A DNA stretch of 64,000 bases from Hyaloscypha bicolor E (lineage: Eukaryota; Ascomycota; Leotiomycetes; Helotiales; Hyaloscyphaceae): assembly GCF_002865645.1 (NCBI RefSeq), contig NW_020194685.1, forward strand, positions 2,071,363 through 2,135,362, read 5' to 3'. Within the stretch, counting starts at the first letter, position 1. The number at the start of each line of letters is the position of its first letter. The position numbers and the translations under genes were made by a program. The notes under the pieces are model-generated. The model was not told where the DNA came from, searched no databases, and saw only the letters and a list, made by a program, of their open reading frames with translations. This document shows positions 2,441 through 4,289 of this stretch, one piece after another.

Positions 2441-3079
2441 CTAGTTCTCCAAGTCATGTTTATTGATTGCCTCCACCTTAGCAGCCGAAGCAGAATTCTA
2501 TCCAAATATTAGCCTTTCCCCTCCTCACGGAAGCTTAACTCACAGGATCAAACCGATACCCCAACCACTCCTTCACCAACCGTCTCGCAAGCTCCAACCC
2601 AATGACCCTCTGCCCCAAACACAGCACCTGCGCATCATTGCTCAGCACCGCCCTCTCAACACTGAAGCTATCATGTGCCGTCACGGCTCGGATGCCAGTG
2701 ACCTTGTTCGCGGAAATCGCGACGCCCAGCCCGGTGCCGCAGATCAGCAGTGCGCGGTCGGCTTCCCCTGACTTTATGAGCTTGGCGGCGTCGACGGCGA
2801 AGTGTGGGTATGCGGTTTTGTCGGATGCTGAGTGTGGCCCTGTTGTAATGTATACGTGAGCAAGTGTGAAAATGGGGGGGAGAGAATGGGGCAGGGTTGG
2901 GATGCGTACCAACATCGTGGACGGATGCGACGAGAGGGTTGGCTTTCAGGTCTGCTGTGATGGCGGCTTTGTATTCAAATCCAGCTGTGAATTGTGTCAG
3001 TATAGTGGAAGGCGGTTGGGACTAGGTAAGTACCATCGTCGCCACCAACTACTATTCTCAGGGGCTTTACTTCTGTCAT
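2441..3079 (-). CDS. RpiB/LacAB-family sugar-phosphate isomerase (EYI2/EryI-like)
   Basis: Four exons on the minus strand: 3034-3079, 2910-2984, 2544-2839 and 2441-2497, giving 157 residues with phases that agree. The N-terminus reads MTEVKPLRIVVGGDDAGFEY, the Rossmann-like start with the substrate-binding Asp of RpiB. The middle carries the CGTGLG loop with the catalytic Cys, followed by ISANK and the THAHD-like VTAHDSF. The C-terminus FDPNSASAAKV comes from a small last exon. Without splicing, the frame stops in the donor itself (GTGAGTTAA), so a naive model would truncate the protein. RpiB-type enzymes interconvert aldose and ketose phosphates, either ribose-5-P/ribulose-5-P or, in erythritol catabolism, erythrulose-4-P/erythrose-4-P. 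The gene lies head-to-head with a TIM paralogue, which favours the second role; this is inference. Length matches the family (about 150-160). Confidence 0.9.
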
Positions 3080-3545
3080 AATGTGGGGATGCGGGGTAAC
3101 TGGGGATGAAGCGTTGAAAGTATGCTGCGCTGGAGAAGAATTATGGGAGTGGATGAGAATGTTGTTAAGGAGGGAGAAAAAGTTGAGAAATCAGACGGGT
3201 AATAGAACCCTTCAACATATTTCCTGCCGCGCACGCTGTGGTTGTGCTTTTGCTGGATGAATTGTTCAGACCCCGTCAAGTGGCAAAGGGCATCTGCACC
3301 GGAAGGCCCAAATAGGTAACCCGATGGTGGGGAAGCTCCAATGTTTTCTCAAGCTAGGGGATGCTTGTTCGGCTTTTTCTCCTAGCAGGATGCCTTTCTT
3401 AGCGGATTGCTGCCCACTTTCAATCATCCTCAATCGTTAGTAGGTTTAATTAACAGTGATTGTCCAGGCGGTGGAGATATAGGATAAATCAGGCAAGTAA
3501 CTGAGCTGCCCATTTCTAAATTGTATCCTCATATCAATAGACGTC
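3080..3545. promoter_or_regulatory. Shared intergenic promoter between the RpiB-like and TIM-like genes
   Basis: The 466 bp between the two divergent start codons hold no supported gene. It is the natural place for a bidirectional promoter controlling both isomerases. A CCGATGG-type GC-rich patch and CT-rich stretches are present, but I cannot assign a specific factor site. Confidence 0.45.
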
Positions 3546-4289
3546 ATGGCAGGCCAAGCTCCTAAGAGGACAGTGGGAGTCTCTCTCAAGATGTACTTCA
3601 ACTTAGAGACCACCGCACAGTATATCAGAGACTGTGCTCCTCTTGCTCCCCATGCATTGTCACACAATGTCGACATCTTCATTATCCCCGACTTCCTTTC
3701 TCTAACAGCTGCGAGCACTATGCTCCGTCTCGAGGCCCCTACCATACGACTCGGAGCCCAGGATTGTTTCTGGGAAGATAATGGCGCATATACCGGGGAA
3801 GTGTCACCTGCTGTACTGAAACACATCGGTTGCTCGCTGGTCGAGCTTGGGCATGCGGAGAGGAGGAGACTGTTCGGAGAGACAGATGCTCAAGTTGGCA
3901 AGAAAGCGAAAGCTGCTATTCGGAATGGCATGACACCTCTGGTGTGTATAGGAGAGAAGACGAAAGGCACGATCGAAGAGGCGGTGGAAGAATGCCGGCC
4001 TCAAATCGAGTCAATCCTCGAAGTCACCGACGAGGAAATCATCTTCGCATATGAGCCCGTCTGGGCGATTGGACAACCTAAACCTGCATCAGCCGAGTAT
4101 GTTGTCAGTGTTGCGAAGGAGCTTCGAAAGCTTTGCGGGACGCGGCCTGTGCGATTCCTGTACGGGGGGTCCGCTGGACCTGGGACGTTTGAGGCCATGA
4201 AAGAGGGTGTTGATGGTTTGTTTCTGGGTCGTTTCGCGCATGACCCGAAAAGGTTCTTCGAAGTTATTCGTGAAGTAGGAGCTCCATAA
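3546..4289 (+). CDS. Triosephosphate-isomerase paralogue (EYI1/EryH-like erythrulose-phosphate isomerase)
   Basis: Intronless, 247 residues, full TIM-barrel length. The three catalytic positions are kept: Lys15 (in SLKMYF, where housekeeping TIM has NWKMN), His103 (ELGHAERR) and Glu170 (AYEPVWAIG). It departs from glycolytic TIM at defining places: the Asn-Trp before the Lys is replaced by Ser-Leu, GHSERR is GHAERR, and the flexible loop after AYEPVWAIG reads QPKPAS instead of TGKTA. This marks a paralogue with a changed substrate. In Yarrowia (EYI1) and Brucella (EryH) such TIM-like enzymes isomerise L-erythrulose-1-P to D-erythrulose-4-P during erythritol breakdown. The divergent RpiB-family gene would supply the next step. 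The fold and catalytic residues are seen; the substrate is inferred. The housekeeping TIM gene should be elsewhere in the genome. Confidence 0.9.
   Translation: MAGQAPKRTVGVSLKMYFNLETTAQYIRDCAPLAPHALSHNVDIFIIPDFLSLTAASTMLRLEAPTIRLGAQDCFWEDNGAYTGEVSPAVLKHIGCSLVELGHAERRRLFGETDAQVGKKAKAAIRNGMTPLVCIGEKTKGTIEEAVEECRPQIESILEVTDEEIIFAYEPVWAIGQPKPASAEYVVSVAKELRKLCGTRPVRFLYGGSAGPGTFEAMKEGVDGLFLGRFAHDPKRFFEVIREVGAP

What the first reader, a model, noticed from the sequence alone, without database searches (positions are those of the whole stretch)
2441..4289. Head-to-head TIM paralogue and RpiB-type isomerase: a likely erythritol-catabolism pair
Both enzymes are the specific families (TIM-like EryH/EYI1, RpiB-like EryI/EYI2) that carry out successive isomerisations of erythrulose phosphates. 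They share a 466-bp promoter. The TIM copy keeps Lys, His and Glu of the active site but has SLK for NWK, GHA for GHS and a changed loop 6, so it is not glycolytic. No erythritol kinase or dehydrogenase is in the window, so the pathway would be split or the pair serves another tetrose or pentose phosphate.
Basis: partly seen in the sequence, partly recalled or inferred. Interest (0 to 1): 0.75.

Follow-up and report, generated by a model that had tools for sequence, protein, structure and literature searches.

The report
Fungal tetrulose-phosphate isomerase gene pair
Two neighbouring fungal genes look like enzymes that in turn rearrange four-carbon sugar phosphates, so that sugars such as erythritol could enter central metabolism; the kind is known from a yeast and from bacteria, and this is a conserved but little-studied version of it.

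Summary
Window 2441-4289 carries a four-exon RpiB-type gene (157 aa, minus strand) and, head to head across 466 bp, an intronless TIM paralogue (247 aa). The genome (82 Mb, Helotiales-like) has a second, glycolytic TIM, one RpiA match and no other RpiB match. The pair recurs in other Helotiales. Of 80 nearest bacterial TIM loci, 75 hold an RpiB and 73 a dihydroxyacetone-kinase-family gene. The RpiB keeps all five unusual residues of the Coccidioides immitis 'RpiB' structures. I suggest that Ser replaces the ring-opening His because erythrose 4-phosphate has no ring to open. Best reading: L-erythrulose-1-P to D-erythrulose-4-P (TIM-like) to D-erythrose-4-P (RpiB-like). Erythritol is the likeliest source, unproven. 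Against it: no linked kinase or dehydrogenase was found, Yarrowia's erythritol promoter boxes are absent, the NCBIfam equivalog that the RpiB passes says ribose-5-phosphate isomerase, and 27 of 80 bacterial loci look like D-apionate operons (pathway names recalled), although a marker family of these is not found in this genome. The finding's EYI1/EYI2 labels do not match the paper that coined EYI1. A new member of a known kind.

The parts
3546..4289 (+). TIM paralogue, 247 aa, intronless; proposed L-erythrulose-1-phosphate isomerase
2441..3079 (-). RpiB-type gene, 157 aa, exons 3079-3034, 2984-2910, 2839-2544, 2497-2441; proposed D-erythrulose-4-phosphate isomerase
2441..2497 (-). Last exon; supplies the Ser and Lys that match C. 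immitis Ser145 and Lys148
3080..3545 (.). 466-bp intergenic region, putative divergent promoter; six SYGGRG matches on one strand, none on the other; no Yarrowia Box A or B

Best explanation
The pair encodes the two-step tetrulose-phosphate isomerase module that passes four-carbon sugars into the pentose phosphate pathway. The TIM-like enzyme moves the carbonyl of L-erythrulose 1-phosphate to the neighbouring carbon, giving D-erythrulose 4-phosphate. The RpiB-like enzyme turns that into D-erythrose 4-phosphate, which transketolase and transaldolase use. Upstream, an unlinked dehydrogenase and an unlinked dihydroxyacetone-kinase-family enzyme would supply L-erythrulose 1-phosphate, most likely from erythritol. 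Shown here: gene anatomy, families, subfamily and active-site make-up, operon context of bacterial kin, recurrence of the pair in Helotiales. Inferred: substrates, order of steps, co-expression, the link to erythritol.
For: Of 80 nearest bacterial TIM loci, 75 hold RpiB and 73 a DAK-family kinase; in 57 an RpiB of at least 55% identity lies directly upstream on the same strand, in 54 of these with the kinase directly before it. TIM clade apart from glycolytic TIM, the genome's own included. Nearest non-fungal solved chain by profile is an L-erythrulose-1-phosphate isomerase, 11ef, 193 bits against 173 for the next. The TIM passes none of the nine NCBIfam TIM cut-offs listed. RpiB keeps Asp17, Arg105, Ser109, Ser145 and Lys148 of the C. 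immitis enzyme, whose authors suspected a shorter-chain substrate (PMC3212906). RpiA is present for ribose 5-phosphate. Yarrowia homologues serve erythritol use (PMC5992420, PMC7232202, PMC9835291, passages). LerI and DerI work together in E. coli (PMC10733421, passages).
Against: The NCBIfam equivalog passed by the RpiB, TIGR02133, says ribose-5-phosphate isomerase (198 bits, cut-off 168), and the D-erythrulose-4-P model NF051858 is not reached (153 against 240). No DAK match in the window; the nearest lies about 0.6 Mb away on the same contig. No EYK1, EYD1 or EUF1 orthologue was identified; Yarrowia sequences were not at hand. No Yarrowia promoter box in the gap. The solved 11ef falls outside the fungal plus operon clade. 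No activity data for this fungus.
Confidence: 0.72

Rival explanations
1. The pair handles L-erythrulose from another source, such as plant D-apiose/D-apionate or L-threitol, rather than erythritol.
For: 27 of 80 bacterial loci carry both a PF16896-type dehydrogenase and a PF01261 protein like those of L026, a set that I recall from D-apionate operons. The genome looks like that of a plant-associated Hyaloscypha relative (the life style is recalled).
Against: No PF16896 match in this genome, with a query that works in L026's genome; no match to L026's PF01261 protein (without a positive control). Kineococcus, the nearest bacterial relative, lacks PF16896 too.
Confidence: 0.15
2. Ordinary spare isomerases: a second ribose-5-phosphate isomerase and a second triosephosphate isomerase.
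For: Database names, and TIGR02133 and PRK05571 above cut-off for the RpiB.
Against: Ring-opening His replaced by Ser and phosphate site changed; ribose 5-phosphate did not shift the melting point of the C. immitis enzyme (PMC3212906); the TIM lies outside the glycolytic clade; kinase-RpiB-TIM operons.
Confidence: 0.08
3. The pair runs backwards and helps to make erythritol as an osmolyte.
For: Isomerases are reversible; more erythritol was seen when the RpiB-type gene was overexpressed in Yarrowia (PMC5992420, passages).
Against: In Yarrowia its deletion impairs assimilation while synthesis remains unchanged (PMC5992420, abstract passage).
Confidence: 0.03

Closest known systems
Yarrowia lipolytica erythritol utilisation cluster (TIM-type YALI0F01584g, RpiB-type YALI0F01628g, EYK1, EYD1, EUF1)
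   Same: One TIM-type and one RpiB-type isomerase, genes close together; a short divergent promoter is used there too (438 bp, between EYK1 and the RpiB gene; PMC9835291)
   Different: Here the divergent partners are TIM and RpiB; no kinase or dehydrogenase found beside them; Box A and Box B absent; sequences not compared directly, for want of Yarrowia sequences
Bacterial kinase-RpiB-TIM (LerK-DerI-LerI-like) operons
   Same: Same subfamilies: TIM 59% and RpiB 71% to Kineococcus xinjiangensis; same SLK/GHA and Arg/Ser/Ser/Lys signatures
   Different: Operon with kinase; the fungal pair is divergent, RpiB has introns, and the genome's DAKs are not of the operon type: best long alignments 28-30%, to C33
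Brucella EryH/EryI
   Same: TIM-fold plus RpiB-fold isomerases in sequence (PMC5992420, passages)
   Different: Their pathway begins with erythritol kinase EryA. The solved L-erythrulose-1-P isomerase 11ef, which I took as EryH-like (organism not given by any search), falls outside the fungal plus operon clade
Coccidioides immitis RpiB (3QD5, 3SDW, 3SGW) and the solved TIM-like chain 3s6d
   Same: Closest solved structures for both proteins; same unusual RpiB residues
   Different: No substrate assigned in PMC3212906; the species of 3s6d is recalled as C. immitis and comes from no call

Membership tests
L-erythrulose-1-phosphate isomerase (TIM fold) | TIM family fold with catalytic Lys, His, Glu | tested here: met
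   PF00121; Lys15, His103, Glu170 conserved in the alignment
L-erythrulose-1-phosphate isomerase (TIM fold) | Clade distinct from glycolytic TIM | tested here: met
   96/99 for fungi plus operon-type, 100/99 for glycolytic rows, own glycolytic TIM included
L-erythrulose-1-phosphate isomerase (TIM fold) | Same clade as the solved enzyme 11ef | tested here: not met
   11ef lies outside the fungal plus operon clade, though it is the next best solved match
L-erythrulose-1-phosphate isomerase (TIM fold) | Activity on L-erythrulose 1-phosphate | not testable with these tools
   Needs an assay
D-erythrulose-4-phosphate isomerase (RpiB fold) | RpiB family with catalytic Cys and the Arg/Ser/Ser/Lys phosphate site | tested here: met
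   PF02502; residues. That this site defines the class is my proposal
D-erythrulose-4-phosphate isomerase (RpiB fold) | NCBIfam equivalog NF051858 above cut-off | tested here: not met
   153 bits against 240; TIGR02133 'ribose-5-phosphate isomerase' is passed, as it is by the RpiBs of L018 and L026
Ribose-5-phosphate isomerase B | TIGR01120 rpiB above cut-off and ring-opening His | tested here: not met
   115.9 bits against 138.65; Ser in place of His
Yarrowia-type erythritol cluster | Linked kinase, dehydrogenase and EUF1-type regulator | tested here: not met
   No Dak1 match in the window; no dehydrogenase partner among the ORFs scanned, 22 of 27 of at least 190 aa; a Fungal_trans ORF lies about 27 kb away, its relation to EUF1 untested
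Yarrowia-type erythritol cluster | Box A and Box B in the promoter | tested here: not met
   None within 3080-3545 at up to 2 and 3 mismatches
D-apionate pathway | PF16896-type dehydrogenase and PF01261 enzyme in the genome | tested here: not met
   PF16896 absent with a working positive control; L026's PF01261 protein unmatched, without control

The most novel reading that the evidence does not exclude
A tetrulose-phosphate isomerase module of bacterial operon type was exchanged between bacteria (Kineococcus-like actinobacteria being nearest) and ancestral Pezizomycotina, became a divergent pair in the fungi, and works with a native, unlinked kinase. Its RpiB explains the orphan fungal 'RpiB' crystal structures: the ring-opening His is gone because erythrose 4-phosphate cannot cyclise, so many fungal entries named RpiB or TIM are tetrulose-phosphate isomerases.
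Probability: 0.35. Interest if true: 0.55.

Novelty: new member of a known kind. Interest (0 to 1): 0.4.

Why it matters
It offers a testable substrate for a fungal RpiB whose crystal structures appeared in 2011 without one, and for its TIM-like neighbour. It suggests that many entries named 'ribose 5-phosphate isomerase B' and 'triosephosphate isomerase' in filamentous ascomycetes are tetrulose-phosphate isomerases. It extends the erythrulose route known from Yarrowia to Helotiales.

Tried and rejected
Apionate pathway in this fungus: PF16896 not found although the query works in L026's genome, and L026's PF01261 protein not matched, without a control; not adopted. Yarrowia Box A and B in the gap: absent. 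Transfer and its direction: a first quick TIM tree joined fungi to Kineococcus at 89 but held two wrong-strand outgroup rows. In the corrected careful tree this is unresolved: the bacterial rows form one side of a branch at 54/97, in 56% of bootstrap trees, and the fungal rows do so in 42%. Direction is left open. Kinase orthology: bacterial operon kinases matched four of the genome's five DAK loci, in pieces of about 24-47% identity and best over length at 28-30% to C33; C24 gave no hit (one search is similar). No EYK1 orthologue was named. Carbon-catabolite sites: six SYGGRG in the gap, against 3 of 137 equal pieces of the window with six or more; a weak hint only.

Literature: no paper in the library held apionate, L-erythrulose and apiose together; none held erythrulose, RpiB, triosephosphate isomerase and fungi together; none held three of ribose 5-phosphate isomerase B, triosephosphate isomerase, erythrulose and ascomycete. 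Most subscription journals are missing there. The third protein search, structure prediction and fold search were not used.

Full report
WHAT IS THERE. The window is G000:C71:2071363-2135362 in a genome of 82 Mb and 76 contigs. Best named protein matches are Helotiales: Acephala and Mollisia for the TIM, Hyaloscypha finlandica for the RpiB (lineage of the latter). The TIM paralogue is one open frame, 3546-4289 +. The RpiB-type gene runs from 3079 to 2441 on the minus strand in four exons with GT-AG introns; its last exon supplies the C-terminal stretch and agrees with P0121. The start codons are 466 bp apart.

MORE THAN CHANCE. Ten contig lengths occur in both top-120 lists, two of them 3146 and 8726 bp; of 32 contigs of 100 kb or more with a listed TIM hit, 8 also carry a listed RpiB hit. 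That is a lower bound, since 120 of 7895 and of 8000 hits are listed. Locus tags are consecutive in Mollisiaceae sp. (EG329_010134/010135), Drepanopeziza (LZ554_002045/002044) and Oculimacula (VTL71DRAFT_7347/7346).

COPY NUMBER. PF00121 matches two places, the window's and a stronger one on C33 that groups with glycolytic TIMs. PF02502 matches the window's gene alone, RpiA one place, Dak1 five places on C33, C22, C18, C71 and C24.

BACTERIAL KIN. A profile of 18 mostly fungal TIMs (one, P0104, is Kineococcus) brought the best 80 of 476 confirmed loci. RpiB was found in 75 of 80, a DAK-family kinase in 73, a PF01261-like protein in 53, a PF16896-type dehydrogenase in 27. In 57 an RpiB of at least 55% identity lies directly upstream of TIM on the same strand, in 54 of these with the kinase directly before it; in 14 RpiB lies on the other strand only; 5 have no RpiB hit and 7 no kinase hit, two of the latter (L025, L042) cut by the contig end. 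In Pseudomonas fragi (L026) the order is MFS transporter, kinase, RpiB, TIM, PF01261, PF16896/KARI, GFO/IDH/MocA. I recall this as the D-apiose/D-apionate pathway, in which L-erythrulose arises by decarboxylation; the names LerK, OiaC, ApnO and ApsD used in my scripts are recalled, not tested. This fungus has no PF16896 match, while L026's genome has.

TREES. TIM, careful tree of 60 rows: fungi plus operon-type bacteria form a clade at 96/99, with 11ef outside and glycolytic TIMs outside at 100/99; nesting of fungi and bacteria is unresolved. RpiB, quick tree of 100 rows: fungi plus operon-type rows against 15 divergent RpiBs at 96; fungal clade 94 without P0236, a bacterial bin that groups with bacteria. 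Identities to Kineococcus xinjiangensis are 59% (TIM) and 71% (RpiB). Exchange between bacteria and fungi is therefore likely, its direction not shown.

ACTIVE SITES. C. immitis RpiB has Asp17 where others have His or Asn, Arg105, Ser109 in place of the ring-opening His, and Ser145 and Lys148 at the phosphate; ribose 5-phosphate did not change its melting temperature, and the authors suspected shorter-chain substrates (PMC3212906, parts 1 and 2 of 4 read). All five residues are kept in the window protein. Across rows: Ser109 in 118 of 119 listed fungal-type, 59 of 59 operon-type and 15 of 15 divergent RpiBs; Arg105 in 119, 59 and 15; Ser145 in 77 of 119, 59 of 59 and 15 of 15; Lys148 in 72 of 119, 59 of 59 and 15 of 15, the C-terminus of the listed proteins being ragged; Asp17 in 102 of 119, 46 of 59 and 6 of 15. 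The solved chain 3ph3, named ribose-5-phosphate isomerase, has Met and His at the Arg105 and Ser109 sites; 5ifz, also so named, has Arg and Ser there, so the name in a database does not settle the class. Inference from chemistry: erythrose 4-phosphate has its C4 oxygen phosphorylated and cannot form a furanose, so an isomerase for it needs no ring-opening His. The TIM subfamily keeps Lys, His and Glu but has SLK and GHA (SLKMY in 60 of 80 bacterial rows, GHAE in 75 of 80). Its proposed substrate is dihydroxyacetone phosphate with one more CH2OH, so smaller side chains there are plausible; this was not modelled.

KNOWN BIOLOGY. In Yarrowia, YALI0F01584g (TIM type) and YALI0F01628g (RpiB type) lie with EYK1, EYD1 and EUF1; both were higher on erythritol, and deletion of YALI0F01628g impairs its assimilation (PMC5992420, passages). 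The order dehydrogenase, kinase, L-erythrulose-1-P isomerase, D-erythrulose-4-P isomerase is given in PMC7232202 (passages), while PMC5992420 had proposed phosphorylation first. Names differ: EYI1 is YALI0F01628g (PMC5992420); EYL1 is YALI0F01584g in PMC7232202 and YALI0F01628g in PMC9835291 (passages). EYK1 and YALI0F01628g share a 438-bp bidirectional erythritol-inducible promoter (PMC9835291, passages). A survey found genomic evidence for this type of route in 85 yeasts, 68 of them known to use erythritol (PMC8532513, passages). Trichoderma reesei has NAD-linked erythritol dehydrogenase activity, and a mutant is impaired on erythritol relative to wild type (PMC2483294, passages). LerI and DerI with EltD and LerK let a transketolase-less E. 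coli grow on erythritol and L-threitol (PMC10733421, passages).

AGAINST. TIGR02133 and PRK05571 pass and call the RpiB ribose-5-phosphate isomerase; the D-erythrulose-4-P model is not reached. The RpiBs of L018 and L026, which lie in kinase-TIM operons, pass TIGR02133 as well. No Dak1 match lies in the window. Of 27 open stretches of at least 190 aa, 22 were scanned: no polyol dehydrogenase was seen, only a Pyr_redox_2 fragment; genes of short exons may be missed. A Fungal_trans ORF lies about 27 kb away, not tested against EUF1. The genome's DAKs are not of the operon type.

VERDICT. A conserved tetrulose-phosphate isomerase pair, a new member of a known kind; erythritol is the likeliest of several unproven sources.

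Noticed in passing
L013 (G000:C71:1448500-1458499), about 5537-6660 minus and 7973-8761 plus: Dak1 and Dak2 domains lie on opposite strands, head to head, whereas L014 and L015 carry them in tandem; a split or rearranged dihydroxyacetone kinase about 0.6 Mb from the pair on the same contig.
   Followed up: partly
window 4932-6500 +: Gene fragments of a pyridine-nucleotide-disulphide oxidoreductase type (PF07992 in 5893-6216) next to the TIM gene; intron-rich, not modelled.
   Followed up: no
window 10225-11993 +: UNC-93/MFS-type membrane protein about 6 kb from the pair; substrate unknown.
   Followed up: no
window 30858-32549 -: Protein with a Fungal_trans domain (PF04082); a possible regulator, relation to EUF1 untested.
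   Followed up: no
L026 2389-9597 (Pseudomonas fragi) and 26 further bacterial loci: Kinase, TIM and mostly RpiB genes joined to PF01261 and PF16896 genes, which looks like D-apionate breakdown feeding L-erythrulose.
   Followed up: partly
L040, L044, L047, L048, L049, L052, L060, L062, L075, L077, L086, L088, L091, L092: In these 14 loci the RpiB (40-50% identical) lies on the opposite strand from TIM; the 13 long enough to align keep the Arg/Ser/Ser/Lys site.
   Followed up: partly
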